Assembly: GCA_023382715.1 (NCBI GenBank)
Contig: JAHDWP010000016.1
Location: forward strand, 1 to 64,000
Reading direction: 5' to 3'
Length of the DNA stretch: 64,000 nucleotides
Source: Anaerolineae bacterium
Lineage (GTDB): Bacteria > Chloroflexota > Anaerolineae > Aggregatilineales > Aggregatilineaceae
Part shown: in pieces, positions 47,437 to 54,611 of the stretch
Numbering within the stretch: position 1 is the stretch's first letter
Layout of the letters: each line of letters starts with the position of its first letter
Translations under genes and position numbers: made by a program
The notes under the pieces: generated by a model
Told to the model about the DNA's origin: nothing
What the model saw: the letters and a program-made list of their open reading frames with translations, nothing else
Databases searched by the model: none

Positions 47437-48845
47437 GGTTGCCCCTTCCCGGAACTCAGCGCATCGAGCACCTGGCGGCCAATCTGCGGCGCGTCGCCCG
47501 CCGAAAGCAGCACGATCGCGTCGCCGGGCCGGGCGCAGGCGACCAACGTCTGCGCTGTCGCGTCCAGCGGGCCAGTATAGCGCACATCAGGATGCCCGGC
47601 AGCGGCAATCTGCCCGGCCATGCCCGCCGCGTCCAGGCCCGCCGTGACCGCCTCGCGCACCGAATACACGTCCGTGACCAGCACGTGATCGGCGGCAGCG
47701 AAGGCAGCGGCGAACTCGCCGGCCAGGGCGCGCATCCGCCCGTAGGTGTGCGGCTGCCAGACCGCCCACAGCTCGCGCAGACCGGGGCGGGCGCGCAGCG
47801 CCTCCAGCGTGACGCGCACGGCGGTTGGGTGGTGGGCGTAGTCGCTGATCACGGTCACGCCGCCAGCAACGCCCAGCACTTCGGCGCGGCGGCCCGTGCC
47901 CAGGAAGCTGCTCAGCGCCCCCGCCGCGACCGCGAAGGGCACGCCGGCATGATCGGCGGCGGCGATCACCGCCAGGGCGTTGAGCACGTTGTGCCGCCCG
48001 GCCAGCGCCAGCCGCACACGCCCCAGGTTCTGCGCCCCGCGCCAGGCGGTGAAAGCCGTGCCGCCAGCCGCATCGGGGACGAGGTCGCTGGCCCGCCAGA
48101 ATGTCTCGCCAGCAGCGCCCGCGAATCCGTAAAAAGCGACGGGGTGCCCGGCTGCGCGGCGCCGATCGCCCAGGGCGCGCGCCTCCGCGTCGTCCGCACA
48201 GACGATCAGCAGCCCATCGTCCGGCAGCAGCGCGGCGAATTCAGCGAAGGCGGCGCGCACGTCGTCCAGCGTCGGGTAGCAGTCCGGGTGATCGTGCTCG
48301 ATGTTGGTGATGATCGCTATCTGCGGGCGCAGGCCGAGGAACATGCGGTCGTACTCGTCCGCCTCGATGACGAAGTGCGGCCCGCGCCCGACTCCGGCGT
48401 TGGCCCCCGTGTTGCGCAGCACGCCGCCGATGATGTAAGTCGGGTCCAGCCCGGCCTCGCTCAGCACGTGAACCAGCAGGGCGGTGGTCGTCGTCTTGCC
48501 GTGCGTCCCGGCGACGGCGATGCCCACCTGCCCGGCCATCAGCGCGCCGAGCAGCTCGCGCCGCCGCAGCACGGGGATGCCCGCCGTGCGCGCCGCCGCG
48601 ATCTCCGGGTTATCTTCGCGCGCCGCCGACGTGGCCGCCACCAGGTCGGCTCCGGCGACGTGGGCCGCCGCGTGCCCCTGGTAGATTGTCGCGCCGGCGG
48701 CGGCCAGGGCGCGCGTCAGATCGTTGGCGCCCAGGTCGGAGCCGCTGACCGCGTAGCCGCGCCCCAGCAGCACGCGAGCGATGGCCGACATGCCGAAGCC
48801 GCCGATGCCGATGATATGAACGTGTTGGCCGGGGGAAAGAGTCAT
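47433..48845 (-). CDS. murC: UDP-N-acetylmuramate--L-alanine ligase (MurC)
   Basis: A 470-residue cytoplasmic ligase that adds L-Ala to UDP-MurNAc. It has the Rossmann start HIIGIGGFGMSAIARVLL, the ATP loop VAGTHGKTTTTALLVHVL, the central-domain NIEHDHPDCYPTLDDVRAAF and the C-terminal VISDYAHHPTAVRVTL. It overlaps murB downstream and an ATPase-associated TOPRIM gene upstream, both by 4 bp. It is therefore co-translated with an apparently unrelated gene. Confidence 0.96.
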   Translation of the reverse strand: MTLSPGQHVHIIGIGGFGMSAIARVLLGRGYAVSGSDLGANDLTRALAAAGATIYQGHAAAHVAGADLVAATSAAREDNPEIAAARTAGIPVLRRRELLGALMAGQVGIAVAGTHGKTTTTALLVHVLSEAGLDPTYIIGGVLRNTGANAGVGRGPHFVIEADEYDRMFLGLRPQIAIITNIEHDHPDCYPTLDDVRAAFAEFAALLPDDGLLIVCADDAEARALGDRRRAAGHPVAFYGFAGAAGETFWRASDLVPDAAGGTAFTAWRGAQNLGRVRLALAGRHNVLNALAVIAAADHAGVPFAVAAGALSSFLGTGRRAEVLGVAGGVTVISDYAHHPTAVRVTLEALRARPGLRELWAVWQPHTYGRMRALAGEFAAAFAAADHVLVTDVYSVREAVTAGLDAAGMAGQIAAAGHPDVRYTGPLDATAQTLVACARPGDAIVLLSAGDAPQIGRQVLDALSSGKGQP

Positions 48846-49468
48846 GGAGCAGGAGTCCAGTGTTGGAGCGTGTGCAGGGCAGCGATACAGCGGTGCAGGC
48901 TGTCCGAGCGTTGGGCAGCTACCTCAGGACGCCACTGCGCCGAACCCGCCGCCGTCACATACTCGATGAGGCGGGCCGTATAAGCCGGCCCGACCTTCGC
49001 CCCGCTGCCAGGGCGTGGCACCATGTCCTTGACAATAGCCGAACGACGGCTGTAGCGCGCCAGGCTCACCAAGGTTGCTTTGGGGTCAGGCTCATCTTCC
49101 GGCAAGGAAGGGACTCTGGCTCTTGGAATCGCCAGAAAGCCGGCCAGGGTCTCCGCATCGGCCAGCAGCCAGGACTCGATAGCCCGCACCGCCACACGGA
49201 AGCGCATCCAGCGGTTGGGGTACGGCAGGTGTTGACGCACCAGCACTGGGGCACACTCAGGCGCTTGATCAAGGTCAACAACCGCCACCCAGGGCGAGAA
49301 TCTGGCAGCCTGGTTGTAACCTGGCAATACACTCAGGAGGTAGTCCTTGCCTTTCTCTCCGAAAGTCCTGCCACAGGGAAGTCCCGCCCATTCAAGGATG
49401 CGTTGGACGACAACCCTGTCTGCGAGACCCTCTACAAGCAGGTTAATAGCGGGCGCGCCATCGGGCAT
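48842..49468 (-). CDS. TOPRIM-like (DUF4276/RloB-type) nuclease-like protein
   Basis: A 208-residue protein with TOPRIM-like metal residues: the glutamate in INLLVEGLADRVVVQRIL and the acidic pair in WVAVVDLDQAPE. The later block RVAVRAIESWLLADAETLAGFL resembles the conserved E-x-WLLAD stretch of DUF4276/RloB-type proteins. It follows the ATPase gene by 9 bases and its stop overlaps the murC start by 4 bp. Similar ATPase-TOPRIM pairs (AbiL, PARIS) protect against phages, but function here is an inference. Without the ATPase context it would be a hypothetical protein. Confidence 0.75.
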   Translation of the reverse strand: MPDGAPAINLLVEGLADRVVVQRILEWAGLPCGRTFGEKGKDYLLSVLPGYNQAARFSPWVAVVDLDQAPECAPVLVRQHLPYPNRWMRFRVAVRAIESWLLADAETLAGFLAIPRARVPSLPEDEPDPKATLVSLARYSRRSAIVKDMVPRPGSGAKVGPAYTARLIEYVTAAGSAQWRPEVAAQRSDSLHRCIAALHTLQHWTPAP

Positions 49469-49477
49469 GTCAAGTTC

Positions 49478-50611
49478 TCACCACAGCGCCAACTGAGTGG
49501 CCTTCTCCGGCTGCGTGTAGGAGATGGCTACGTCGCCCGGCGATACCCCCGCTTCGAGCAGGGTCCTGATCTCGGCAATCTCGGCCCCTACCCTGACCTG
49601 ACTCCCCTCCCTCTTAGGGATGAAAAGCAATATCTCGTCCGCCGCAATGCCCTCGGAGAGCAATTCGACGCTGTGGGTGCTCACTATCACCTGGCGTGCG
49701 TTCTTGCGATCGTGCAGCACCCGCCACATCATCTGCGGTATATGGCGCACGACCGCCGGATGCAAAGACAACTCCGGCTCTTCGAGCAAGAGGGGGCCAC
49801 CGCCTTCCAGCAGCGACCAGAGCAGTCCTAGCAAGCGCAGCGTGCCGTCGGAGAAATCAGCTTCAGTTTGCCACGCGCCATGCGGACGCCAGTGCTCATA
49901 GTTGCCGGACAGGTGCGGCACGCCTCGCTTGTCCTTTTCCAGGCGAAGCTCTCGTAGCTGGGGGACAGCCACCTGCAGAGCCGCCGTGATTCGGCGCAAG
50001 CGCGCGTCGCGAGTCCTGGCATTGGTGCGGGCTATCCGCTCCAGGAAATCTCCCCCGTAGGGATCAACCATGTCTCCCTGCCAGCGGTCGGGAGAACGCA
50101 CCAACTGGGGCACCAGGTGAAAGTAGCTGACTTTCTCGAAAAAATCAGCGATGGGCCGAAAGTCGCGGTTGGCAAAGGTCTGCTCCAGGTGAGTCTGGCG
50201 CAGGCGTTCCGGGTCATCTTTATCGGCGCTGTCCGGGCGGCTGAGGATACGGTCTTCCCCTTGCCAGACGCGCTCCTCTTTGAGCACAGGCCGGCTCTGG
50301 TTGTCTTGGGCAAAGGCAATCCGGTAGCGCCAGTCGCGCTCTGTGCCCTCTGCCTGCAAGTACACCTCTACCACGATCTCTGGATAGCGGCGCGCCGCGA
50401 GATTCCTGATGCTGGAGACGCCTCCACGGCTGATTACCGCCTGCTCAAAACCGCCACCGGGCACCACCAGGTCGCGCAGGAAGCGAAACACATCCAGAAA
50501 GTTCGACTTGCCGGAAGCATTCGGCCCGACCAGGAAGGCGCGCTCTTGTAGACGCACGTCCACCTGGTCGAAATTGCGCCAGTTTTCAAGGATGACTTGG
50601 GAAAAGCGCAT
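49478..50611 (-). CDS. OLD-like/AAA_21 family ATPase
   Basis: A 377-residue ATPase of the SMC/OLD/RecF type. It has MRFSQVILENWRNFDQVDV, Walker A GPNASGKSNFLDVF, the signature-like SDGTLRLLGLLWSLL, Walker B PLLLEEPELSLHP and the H-loop QVIVSTHSVELLSEG. There is no nuclease domain fused; the next gene supplies a TOPRIM-like protein. AAA_21 ATPases with a separate TOPRIM partner are typical of defence modules such as AbiL. It lies between the cvpA-like gene and murC in a division cluster, where neither partner is usual. Confidence 0.88.
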   Translation of the reverse strand: MRFSQVILENWRNFDQVDVRLQERAFLVGPNASGKSNFLDVFRFLRDLVVPGGGFEQAVISRGGVSSIRNLAARRYPEIVVEVYLQAEGTERDWRYRIAFAQDNQSRPVLKEERVWQGEDRILSRPDSADKDDPERLRQTHLEQTFANRDFRPIADFFEKVSYFHLVPQLVRSPDRWQGDMVDPYGGDFLERIARTNARTRDARLRRITAALQVAVPQLRELRLEKDKRGVPHLSGNYEHWRPHGAWQTEADFSDGTLRLLGLLWSLLEGGGPLLLEEPELSLHPAVVRHIPQMMWRVLHDRKNARQVIVSTHSVELLSEGIAADEILLFIPKREGSQVRVGAEIAEIRTLLEAGVSPGDVAISYTQPEKATQLALW

Positions 50612-51305: not shown

Positions 51306-52412
51306 CTACCTCTCTGTCTGCCCGACCAGCAGCTGCGCGATGTTCTCCGCGCCGTCCGAGCGCCTGAGCGCAGCCATCGCCGCGCGCATCGCCGCCAGGC
51401 GCTCCCCGTCGCCGAACAGGGCGCGCACAGTGGGCAGCAATTCCTCGCCCAGCCGCTCGTCGTCTAGTCGCAGCGCCGCCCCGCGCTCGGCCAGCCAGTC
51501 GGCGTTGACCTTCTGGTAGCGCCACGCCCAGGGATAGGGCACGAGAATTGCGGGCAGCGCCAGCTCCGGGTATTCGGCCAGCGTCGCCGCCCCCGCCCGG
51601 CTGACCACCAGATCGGCAGCGGCGAAGGCCCCCCCGATGTCCGGCAGGAAGGCGTGAATCTGGTAATGCGTCCGCTGCTCATCGCTCAGCGCCGCGTGCT
51701 GCGCCTGAACCGTCTCCCAGTCAAGCTGGCCGGAGATGTGCACAATCTGGGCGCCATCGGCCAGCAGCGCCGGCGCGACCTGGGCCATCGCCGTGTTGAT
51801 GCTGCGCGACCCCCGGCTGCCGCCGAAGACCAGCAGCGTCTTGCGCGCCGGGTCGAGTCCCAGGGCGCGGGTGCCTGCTTCGCGGCTGGCGCCGAGAATC
51901 TCCGGGCGCAGCGGGTAGCCGGTCGTCACCACGCGCTTGCCAGGGAAGAAAGCGGCGGTTTCCGGCACGGTTGCGGCGATGGTGTGGGCGAAATAGCGCC
52001 CCAGCAGCTTGAGCGTCAGGCCCGGCTCGATGTCCGGCACATAGATGACGATCGGGCGGCGCAGCAGCCTGCACGCCACCGCCATCGGGAAGCCGACCCA
52101 CCCGCCCGTCAGGAACAACGCCTGGGGCCGCAGCCGGATCGCCAGGATCAGCGACTGGACGATGCCGAGCGCGATCTTGGCCGCGCTGACGATCTGCCCC
52201 CGGCGCGGGATGCCGTGCAGCGGCCCGGCCAGCACCTCGTGATAGCCATCGAAGCGCACGTCAGCGCGCCGGACAAGGTCGCGGGCCATGTCGCCGCGCG
52301 CGCCGACGAAGGTCAGCGTCAGGTCGTCGTACAGGCGGCGCAGCGCCCCGGCCACAGCCAGCGCGGGGTAGACGCCGCCGCCGGTTCCCCCGGCAGAAAT
52401 CATGATGCGCAA
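51306..52412 (-). CDS. murG: UDP-GlcNAc:lipid I transferase (MurG)
   Basis: A 368-residue membrane-associated GT-B transferase that makes lipid II. The N-terminus MRIMISAGGTGGGVYPALAV corresponds to the family GGTGGHxxPxLA loop, but the conserved His is Gly here. Donor-site motifs are present: LLVFGGSRGSRSINTAM, AADLVVSRAGAATLAEYP and ILVPYPWAWRYQKVNADWL. The start is a TTG with GGGAGA upstream; an ATG three codons in is the alternative. It leads the murG, cvpA, ATPase, TOPRIM, murC, murB stretch. Confidence 0.95.
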   Translation of the reverse strand: MRIMISAGGTGGGVYPALAVAGALRRLYDDLTLTFVGARGDMARDLVRRADVRFDGYHEVLAGPLHGIPRRGQIVSAAKIALGIVQSLILAIRLRPQALFLTGGWVGFPMAVACRLLRRPIVIYVPDIEPGLTLKLLGRYFAHTIAATVPETAAFFPGKRVVTTGYPLRPEILGASREAGTRALGLDPARKTLLVFGGSRGSRSINTAMAQVAPALLADGAQIVHISGQLDWETVQAQHAALSDEQRTHYQIHAFLPDIGGAFAAADLVVSRAGAATLAEYPELALPAILVPYPWAWRYQKVNADWLAERGAALRLDDERLGEELLPTVRALFGDGERLAAMRAAMAALRRSDGAENIAQLLVGQTER

Positions 52413-52447: not shown

Positions 52448-52476
52448 TTCACGTCTGTTAAGAATTGTGATATGAT
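52448..52476 (+). promoter_or_regulatory. Promoter of the small RNA candidate
   Basis: TTCACG at 52448-52453 and TATGAT at 52471-52476 with exactly 17 bases between. The -10 has five of six consensus bases and the -35 four of six. It is divergent from murG, whose start codon is 36 bases away on the other strand. Confidence 0.6.
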
Positions 52477-52480
52477 GCAT

Positions 52481-52553
52481 GTGGGATCTGAAACTCAGCA
52501 TATCTGAGCAAGCAGGATCCCTCCGGGGGCGCAAAAGCGCCCTCTTCCTTTTT
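52481..52553 (+). ncRNA. Candidate small RNA with its own terminator
   Basis: A predicted transcript of about 73 bases. GGGATC (52483-52488) pairs with GATCCC (52516-52521), enclosing the CTCAG/CTGAG hairpin (52494-52498 with 52504-52508). It ends in an intrinsic terminator: GGGGGCGC (52525-52532), AAAA loop, GCGCCCTC (52537-52544) and then TTCCTTTTT. No open frame of note lies in it and no plus-strand gene follows. It could also be an attenuated leader whose gene was lost. The class is not recognised. Confidence 0.55.
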
Positions 52554-52657
52554 ATAAACGTACAATATCCATCAGATCGCCGCTTGCAGCCACCTTACAT
52601 AAAATCGGTTCGAGTCTCAGAAAGTGATTGTGGCCAGCTTTGCTCTTCATATAGGCA

Positions 52658-53164
52658 TTAGGGTTGGTGCTGGTGAAGCAAATAAGCGCACAGGTCCACT
52701 GATTGAATGAAATAGAAGTGTGAGGAGTCCTTCAACCAGGGATCTTCAATAATGGTCTGAAGGCGGAGATTGCGGTAGCCGGAACCAAATCGGGCCTGGT
52801 TTGGAATCGGATTGTAATGGCGCATCTTGCGCAGCAATCGCTGCAGCTTCCGTCCATCTGTGTTATCTGTCATGATAATACCGCGCTCGTCCGAATTCTG
52901 TGGCCCGCGGAAGTTCCGGCGCAATATCGTATTCTCGAATCGCTGGATAAGGGCCGTCCACGCTCTTTCGAATACATCAAACCCGGCGCCCTTGCCCTCC
53001 TGGTCAACTACGATGTTGATCACGTTGATGTCTGCAATGCCTGCTGACTTGTCAGCGTATTCACGAAGTATCGCTAGCCGATCATAAGCGTCTATCGCCC
53101 CGCACATTTCCGCGTATATAGCCCCTCCCACATCTAGCAATAACCAGGGGGCGCATTGTCTCAC
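52658..53164 (-). pseudogene. DUF3800 protein remnant, N-terminus missing
   Basis: A reading frame of 168 residues matching the middle and end of DUF3800 proteins: INVINIVVDQEGKGAGFDVFERAW, ERGIIMTDNTDGRKLQRLLRKM, IIEDPWLKDSSHFYFIQSVDLCAYLL. The expected start with a DESG motif is absent, and an in-frame TGA lies just upstream, so about 60-80 residues are lost. The region is clearly more AT-rich than the flanking ftsW and murG genes, consistent with transfer and decay. DUF3800 proteins are common near mobile and defence genes. A short intact gene starting at GTG 53164 cannot be excluded. Confidence 0.65.
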
Positions 53165-53222: not shown

Positions 53223-54467
53223 TCACCCCTGCCGCCGCCTGGGAACCGCGCTGCGACTGACCGCCCGCGAGACGTTGAGCATCACCCCCACGCCAGCCAG
53301 CGCCGCCACCAGGCTCGACCCGCCATAACTGATAAACGGCAGCGGCACCCCCGTCGGCGGGATCATGGCCGTCATCACCGCGATGTTGAGCAGCGCGTCG
53401 TAGGCGATCCAGCAGGTGACCCCCGCCACCAGCAGGCTCCCGAACGCATCCGGCGCGTAGCGGGCGACGGTGAAGCCCCGGTAGATCAGCGCGGCGAACA
53501 GCACGATCACCAGGAAGGTGCCCAGCAATCCCAGTTCTTCGCCGATCACGGCGAAGATGCTGTCCGTGTGCGGGAAGGGCAGCGTGTTGGCGAACTTCTG
53601 CCGGCTTTCGCCCAGGCCCACCCCGGTCAGCCCGCCGTTGATGAAGGCCGTCACCGCCTGCTGCACGTGATCGCTGGCCTGGCGCAGGTCCTCGACGGCG
53701 GCCCAGTGCGCGGCGAGGCGCTGCTGCGCATAGTCCAGGTGGCTGATCAACTGCCAGCCGGCCACGCCCATTACCCCGCCGATAGCAACCATCTGGAACA
53801 GGTCGGCCCCGGCGATGAAGAACATGCTCAGCGCCGTCGCCAGGATGCTGGCCGCCGTGCTCAGGTCTGGCTGGAGCACGATCAGAAAGGCGATCCCGCC
53901 CACCAGAAAGCTGAAGGGGATGATGCCGTAGGTGATGCGGCGGATGCGCCCGCGCTTGGCGGCCAGCCACGCCGCCATGTAGAGCACAACCGCGAACTTG
54001 GCCAGCTCACCTGGCTGCACCGATCCTTCGATCAGCGAGCGCTGCGCCTGAAAGCGCGTGTCGCCGAAGCGCAGCACCAGCCCCAGCAGCACGATCACCA
54101 CGCCGATCATGGGCGCGGCCAGCCGCCGCCAGATGTGATAGTCCACCCGCGAAAACAGCAGCAGCACGGCCACGCCCAGCACCATCGAGCGCAGTTGGCG
54201 CACGAAGAAATAGGTCGTGCTGCTGGCGTTGCCCGTCACCTGGTAGCTGACATCAATCGAGGCGCTGTAGACCATCATCAGGCCGACCGCGCACAGCCCG
54301 GCCACCACCAGCCCCAGGTAGAGGTCGAAGCCGGCGGCATAGGCACGGCGGCGCCCGGCCACTTCCTGGCGATCCGGCGGCGAAGCCTGCGGGCGCGACG
54401 GGCGCACCAGCGCATCGGCATAGTTGAACTCGGTGTCGTCGTCAATATACTGCGGGATATTAGTCAT
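53223..54467 (-). CDS. ftsW: Septal peptidoglycan polymerase FtsW
   Basis: A 414-residue SEDS-family glycosyltransferase with about ten membrane helices that polymerises lipid II at the septum. It has the SVQPGELAKFAVVLYMAAWLA stretch, LQPDLSTAASILATALSMFF, the large external loop (RLAAHWAAVEDLRQASDHVQ) containing the QAVTAFINGGLTGVGLGES motif, IGEELGLLGT and GVPLPFISYGGSSLVAALAG. The ATG at 54467 is preferred to a GTG at 54476. A 70-residue hydrophilic N-terminus precedes the first helix. Position next to murD and murG favours FtsW over RodA. Confidence 0.93.
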   Translation of the reverse strand: MTNIPQYIDDDTEFNYADALVRPSRPQASPPDRQEVAGRRRAYAAGFDLYLGLVVAGLCAVGLMMVYSASIDVSYQVTGNASSTTYFFVRQLRSMVLGVAVLLLFSRVDYHIWRRLAAPMIGVVIVLLGLVLRFGDTRFQAQRSLIEGSVQPGELAKFAVVLYMAAWLAAKRGRIRRITYGIIPFSFLVGGIAFLIVLQPDLSTAASILATALSMFFIAGADLFQMVAIGGVMGVAGWQLISHLDYAQQRLAAHWAAVEDLRQASDHVQQAVTAFINGGLTGVGLGESRQKFANTLPFPHTDSIFAVIGEELGLLGTFLVIVLFAALIYRGFTVARYAPDAFGSLLVAGVTCWIAYDALLNIAVMTAMIPPTGVPLPFISYGGSSLVAALAGVGVMLNVSRAVSRSAVPRRRQG

Positions 54468-54611
54468 GACAGGCACCCCAAGCTCTCAGCGACCAGCTTT
54501 CAGCGAGCAGAGCGGCCCTATGCGAGCGGCCCGCATCGCGCTGTCTACCTTACCGTATGGCACGACCTGGCGCTATGATCGCTCATTGCGCGCTGCGCCC
54601 CGCTTTCCTTC

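What the first reader, a model, noticed from the sequence alone, without database searches (positions are those of the whole stretch)
52448..52553. Compact plus-strand small RNA candidate next to murG
Within 106 bases there is a promoter with 17-base spacing, a closed GGGATC/GATCCC stem holding a second hairpin, and a strong intrinsic terminator. No plus-strand gene follows, so the unit appears complete as an RNA. It could act on mRNAs in trans, for example the divergent murG, or be the surviving leader of a lost gene.
Basis: seen in the sequence. Interest (0 to 1): 0.55.

Follow-up and report, generated by a model that had tools for sequence, protein, structure and literature searches.

The report
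Orphaned partner RNA of DUF3800 nuclease
The small RNA is real: it is the RNA half of a little-understood two-part module whose other half, a predicted nuclease gene of the DUF3800 family, lies broken right beside it here, and intact pairs elsewhere could show what such modules do.

Summary
In detail: promoter, two-stem fold and intrinsic terminator lie at 52448-52553 (+). In 11 copies found, 9 of 11 base pairs show changes on both sides. No Rfam family reaches its threshold.

It is not a murG regulator. Just 3', on the other strand and tail to tail, lies a broken DUF3800 gene (52555-53095; N-terminus not found, frame changed). In 9 other loci the same RNA ends at the stop of an intact DUF3800 gene. 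RNA and protein searches of 396 class genomes agree: all 5 genomes with an intact close DUF3800 have the RNA; of 7 genomes with a strong RNA match, 5 have the intact gene, one a broken gene (the window), one none.

Some DUF3800 genes of other groups carry differently folded RNAs in the same place, and RNA type follows the protein tree; six distant ones scored showed no such signal.

Best reading: the RNA binds and controls an RNase-H-fold nuclease; inhibition is my best guess, unproven. DUF3800-associated RNAs are a known kind of unknown function; this family appears uncatalogued, and this copy is an orphan.

The parts
52448..52476 (+). promoter of the RNA: TTCACG, 17 nt, TG-TATGAT
   Evidence: best-scoring -10 box ends 5-7 nt before the core in 10 of 11 copies
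52483..52521 (+). RNA core: outer stem 52483-52488/52516-52521, inner stem 52494-52498/52504-52508, 5-nt hairpin loop 52499-52503
   Evidence: fold z -4.1; covariation in 11 copies
52489..52493 (+). 5' side of the internal loop, UGAAA (AA in 11 of 11 copies)
52509..52515 (+). 3' side of the internal loop, CAAGCAG; the other 10 copies have AGUAG without the extra A
52525..52553 (+). intrinsic terminator: hairpin 52525-52544 and T tract
52555..53095 (-). broken DUF3800 gene: residues 76-219 (52664-53095) and 212-256 (52555-52689) in different frames; residues 1-75 not found; stop complement at 52552-52554
51306..52412 (-). murG, neighbour at the insertion site, not part of the module
53223..54476 (-). 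ftsW, neighbour at the insertion site, not part of the module

Best explanation
The RNA is the noncoding half of a small (about 0.9 kb) transferable module: a roughly 71-nt self-terminated RNA transcribed tail to tail with a gene for a DUF3800 nuclease of RNase H fold, the two meeting at the DUF3800 stop codon. Shown: a conserved structured RNA, its strand, its pairing with close DUF3800 genes, tail-to-tail order, module limits, and the broken nuclease gene here. Inferred: the RNA binds the DUF3800 protein through its nearly invariant UGAA/AGUAGG internal loop and sets the nuclease's activity, more likely holding it in check (as an RNA antitoxin does) than guiding it; the module probably serves mobile elements in competition or defence. 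Here the nuclease gene is dead and the RNA differs in the loop that the other copies keep, so this copy is an orphan, perhaps decaying.
For: Covariation in 11 copies; 11 G-U against 2 A-C cells of 121 support the strand. In 9 loci beside the window the RNA ends at the stop of an intact DUF3800, 20-37 nt after the core. Reciprocal searches: 5 of 5 class genomes with a close intact DUF3800 (63-69%) have the RNA; 7 strong RNA genomes = 5 intact, 1 broken, 1 without; in 400 phylum genomes the two strong RNA hits (G000, G502) are the two genomes with a close DUF3800. Similarity between copies spans promoter or transcript start to about the DUF3800 start. RNA type tracks protein clade. No variable guide-like segment is seen, and stems vary while the internal loop hardly does, which suits protein binding. 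RNA without an intact protein occurs (window, L048); among close intact proteins whose 3' flank was held, none lacked the RNA. DUF3800 follows, or lies one gene after, the repressor gene in three phages.
Against: No binding or expression data. In a Legionella transposon screen a strain-specific DUF3800 gene was listed among essential genes (PMC7811196, passage), which suits a cofactor or protective protein better than a toxin. The orphan L048 keeps the loop intact without the protein. Six distant DUF3800 loci scored (L027, L030, L035-L038) show no opposite-strand terminator at the stop, so the pairing is not general to all DUF3800. My DUF3800 model was of low confidence, so the RNase H fold rests on PMC10910872. 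Numbers are small.
Confidence: 0.55

Rival explanations
1. The RNA is an activating or scaffold part of a DUF3800 ribonucleoprotein: without it the nuclease is inactive, and the complex cuts foreign or self nucleic acid.
For: Tight pairing with a predicted nuclease and a nearly invariant loop; DUF3800 is an accessory of some class 2 CRISPR loci (PMC12669027, passage; PMC10910872, passages); the Legionella essential-gene listing.
Against: Copies of the RNA without an intact protein exist; no guide-like segment.
Confidence: 0.3
2. The RNA regulates DUF3800 expression in cis, as an antisense or convergent transcript at the 3' end of its mRNA, without binding the protein.
For: Tail-to-tail order with the terminator T tract on the stop codon.
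Against: Overlap with the gene is only a few bases at the stop; an antisense role does not explain covarying stems and a conserved internal loop.
Confidence: 0.1
3. A trans-acting small RNA for murG or other mRNAs.
For: It lies divergent from murG.
Against: The RNA travels with DUF3800; loci with 82-94% identical MurG (L003, L004, L005, L014) gave no R1 match, and one copy lies in a viral contig beside an integrase.
Confidence: 0.03

Closest known systems
DUF3800-associated RNA motifs (RF02969 DUF3800-I and RF02968 DUF3800-IX, named in PMC11701678; Weinberg et al. 2017, cited in PMC10910872; that paper is not held, its details are recalled)
   Same: Structured noncoding RNA next to DUF3800 genes, function unknown
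   Different: No Rfam model reaches its threshold here; whether the published motifs are tail to tail could not be checked
Type III toxin-antitoxin systems (ToxIN; recalled)
   Same: Possible control of a nuclease by a small structured RNA that binds it
   Different: Single RNA unit on the opposite strand, tail to tail, with an RNase-H-fold partner instead of a ToxN fold
OMEGA RNAs of IscB/TnpB elements (recalled)
   Same: Noncoding RNA at the 3' end of a mobile gene for a nuclease with an RNase H-like fold
   Different: Opposite strand, about 71 nt, ends in an intrinsic terminator, no guide segment seen

Membership tests
DUF3800-associated structured RNAs (the kind) | conserved structure | tested here: met
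   9 of 11 pairs with both-side changes in 11 copies
DUF3800-associated structured RNAs (the kind) | adjacent DUF3800 gene | tested here: met
   9 intact and 1 broken of 11 copies
Rfam families, DUF3800-I and DUF3800-IX among them | match to the family model | tested here: not met
   no match at gathering score in the window; at E up to 10 five sub-threshold matches, none of a DUF3800 family
Type III toxin-antitoxin | RNA repeats upstream of the toxin on the same strand (recalled) | tested here: not met
   single unit, opposite strand, at the 3' end
Type III toxin-antitoxin | toxin of the ToxN/AbiF type (recalled) | tested here: not met
   Pfam finds DUF3800 only
Type III toxin-antitoxin | RNA binds and inhibits the toxin protein | not testable with these tools
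   needs binding and growth tests
OMEGA RNA | guide segment taken from element-flanking DNA (recalled) | tested here: not met
   transcript starts at the stem and ends in a terminator; no variable segment seen

The most novel reading that the evidence does not exclude
Many DUF3800 nucleases are one half of two-gene modules in which each protein clade has its own dedicated, tail-to-tail, self-terminated RNA that controls an RNase-H-fold nuclease used in competition among mobile elements (prophage superinfection exclusion or defence). Chloroflexota, actinobacterial and alphaproteobacterial RNA types beyond the catalogued ones exist, and orphan RNAs such as this one may persist as immunity against incoming modules.
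Probability: 0.3. Interest if true: 0.8.

Novelty: new variant of a known kind. Interest (0 to 1): 0.57.

Why it matters
DUF3800 proteins turn up in phages, on plasmids and beside some CRISPR effectors, and RNAs near them have been listed without a function. A defined RNA-protein pair with fixed geometry, visible module limits, a nearly invariant putative binding loop and natural orphans makes the question testable: small proteins, RNAs of about 70 nt, clear mutants and swaps of pairs between clades. It also shows that a lone small-RNA candidate beside a housekeeping gene can be the remnant of a mobile module.

Tried and rejected
A trans role on murG was rejected on distribution. Rfam membership was rejected for the window; other loci scanned gave no DUF3800 family (at gathering score; at E up to 0.5, which listed three microRNA families on L053, taken as chance; one search listed a tRNA on L048). 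L065-L077 were not scanned against Rfam. Chance structure was rejected. Weak R1 hits L052, L075, L076, L077 (23-26 bits) have no DUF3800-like match nearby; I treat them as chance and left them out of the counts and of alignment A10. A guide RNA was rejected for lack of a variable segment. AlphaFold2 on a DUF3800 gave mean pLDDT 38.8, so no fold search was made. A DUF3800 profile against PDB sequences gave nothing. RF02969 was not found in 151 phylum genomes, but its control genomes were silent too, so that is uninformative. A degenerate RNA pattern in viral contigs found only the contig of L040. L043, a DUF3800 cut off by its contig end, could not be tested. In one search, 6 of 38 loci were not scored because my motif did not pick their ORF; of the 10 scored without a terminator, 4 (L042, L062, L071, L072) show an RNA by eye and 6 (L027, L030, L035-L038) show none; one of the 22 positives (L034) is doubtful.

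Full report
What is in the sequence. On the plus strand lie an extended -10 promoter (52448-52476), a two-stem RNA core (52483-52521) and an intrinsic terminator ending at about 52553. The RNA folds far better than shuffles (z -4.1). No Rfam family reaches its gathering score in the whole window; this stretch gives only five sub-threshold hits at E up to 10, none of a DUF3800 family. A DNA search finds one copy in the genome.

The first relative. Among 101 genomes (the own genome and 100 relatives) one other holds similar DNA: G033, another family of the order, 77% over 96 aligned columns. Its changes are compensatory: GGGATC/GATCCC became TGAATC/GATTCA. There the RNA ends on the stop codon of an intact DUF3800 gene on the other strand. 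In the window the same place holds a broken DUF3800: a PF12686 match with residues 76-219 and 212-256 of the intact protein in two frames, at 62% and 53% identity. Residues 1-75 were not found; they include the DESGD motif shared by the intact proteins.

More copies. Further DUF3800 genes with the RNA came from G502 (L031) and two viral contigs (L040, L042). Five copies gave an alignment in which 9 of 11 pairs change on both sides, and model R1. R1 over 396 class genomes found 7 matches above 47 bits and one weak one. Five of the seven lie tail to tail with an intact DUF3800, one is the window, and one (L048, genome G625) has promoter, core and terminator but no close DUF3800; a truncated ORF matching the candidate defence family PDC-S11 abuts it. 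A protein search of 396 class genomes, apparently the same draw, found close intact DUF3800 (63-69%) in exactly those five; G625 is not among its 11 genomes with a match at E up to 1e-8. The other five of the 11 have 33-42% matches. In 400 phylum genomes R1 gave two strong hits, G000 and G502, the two with a close DUF3800; three weak hits have no DUF3800-like match nearby.

Anatomy. In 11 copies 95.0% of pair cells are standard against 80.9% in shuffles and 9 of 11 pairs change on both sides; 11 G-U against 2 A-C cells of 121 support the strand. Five of these 11 built the model. By the script's best scoring the -10 box ends 5-7 nt before the first stem in 10 of 11 copies, so the transcript probably begins at the stem; the DUF3800 stop lies 20-37 nt after the core in the 10 copies with that gene, broken or intact. 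In the internal loop AA on one side and AG.AGGA on the other are invariant; AGUAGG is kept in 10 of 11, the window alone having AGCAGG and an extra base. UGAA facing AGUA resembles a bulged-G (loop E) platform; that label is recalled, not tested. Similarity between copies begins at -1 to -40 from the core in 9 of 11 (L051 reaches -296, not followed up; L042 shows none there) and ends at 826-930, about the DUF3800 start, in 9 of 11 (exceptions: the broken window copy, 552, and the orphan L048, 71).

Generality. DUF3800 genes of actinobacterial plasmids and phages (L053-L056), of alphaproteobacterial plasmids and phages of Pseudomonas and Paracoccus (L057-L064), and of further Chloroflexota groups (L032, L070-L072; L026, L073; L004, L005) carry other hairpin RNAs in the same tail-to-tail place (by eye). 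A rule-based test found an opposite-strand terminator at the stop in 22 of 32 scored DUF3800 loci (38 given, 6 not scored; some loci are near-duplicates) and in 0 of 53 other annotated genes of 12 of these loci. Six distant loci scored show no such signal, one of them the genome's own second DUF3800 (L030). On a tree of 28 DUF3800 proteins five RNA types need 4 changes, the least possible; I assigned the types by eye and the loci were found by protein similarity, so this is support, not proof.

Setting. The ftsW-murG junction is short (28-81 bp between matches) in 9 relatives (L006-L013, L021; 7 of them printed). It is filled in closer ones: another DUF3800 followed by its own hairpin (L004, L005), a GajB-like UvrD helicase gene followed by what looks by eye like the tail and hairpin of that DUF3800 type (L014), and a type II methyltransferase-like gene next to murG (L003). 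In three temperate-type phages DUF3800 directly follows the repressor gene (WinkNick; JBD68, by a Peptidase_S24 match) or lies one gene after it (Pkon1), a usual place for genes expressed from a prophage (recalled).

Mechanism. Shown: structured RNA, strand, tail-to-tail pairing, module limits, broken protein gene here. Inferred: binding through the internal loop and control of nuclease activity. DUF3800 has a predicted RNase H fold and a published association with ncRNAs (PMC10910872, passages), and is an accessory of some class 2 CRISPR loci (PMC12669027, passage). RNA without intact protein (window, L048, perhaps L014), while no close intact protein with a held 3' flank lacked the RNA, suits an antitoxin. 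Against this, a DUF3800 gene was listed as essential in a Legionella transposon screen (PMC7811196, passage), which suits a cofactor or a protective protein better. I hold inhibition as the likelier but unproven variant.

Novelty. DUF3800-associated RNAs are a known kind. The source paper (Weinberg et al. 2017) is not held and its details are recalled; RF02969 and RF02968 are named in PMC11701678 (passage), DUF3800-IX also in PMC7657543 (passage). Searches of the open paper library for DUF3800 showed no title or passage describing this RNA or a tested function; supplements and subscription papers were not seen. The family appears uncatalogued.

Noticed in passing
window 48842-50611 (-): Adjacent gene pair matching the candidate defence system HEC-01 (HEC-01A, E 2.5e-152; HEC-01B, E 8.4e-57).
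   Followed up: partly
ftsW-murG junction in L003, L004, L005, L014: Insertion hotspot: closer relatives hold a different DUF3800 with its own hairpin, a GajB-like helicase or a methyltransferase-like gene.
   Followed up: partly
L048 568-640: Orphan copy of the RNA with intact loop, promoter and terminator, abutting a truncated PDC-S11-like ORF; a tRNA lies at 62-134.
   Followed up: partly
L057-L064, 3' of the DUF3800 genes: Alphaproteobacterial plasmids and two phages share another RNA type (hairpin plus terminator hairpin), tail to tail with DUF3800 and without an Rfam match at E up to 0.5.
   Followed up: partly
L032, L070, L071, L072; L026, L073: Two further Chloroflexota RNA types, tail to tail with more distant DUF3800 genes, sharing a GAA / GUAGG internal loop by eye.
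   Followed up: partly
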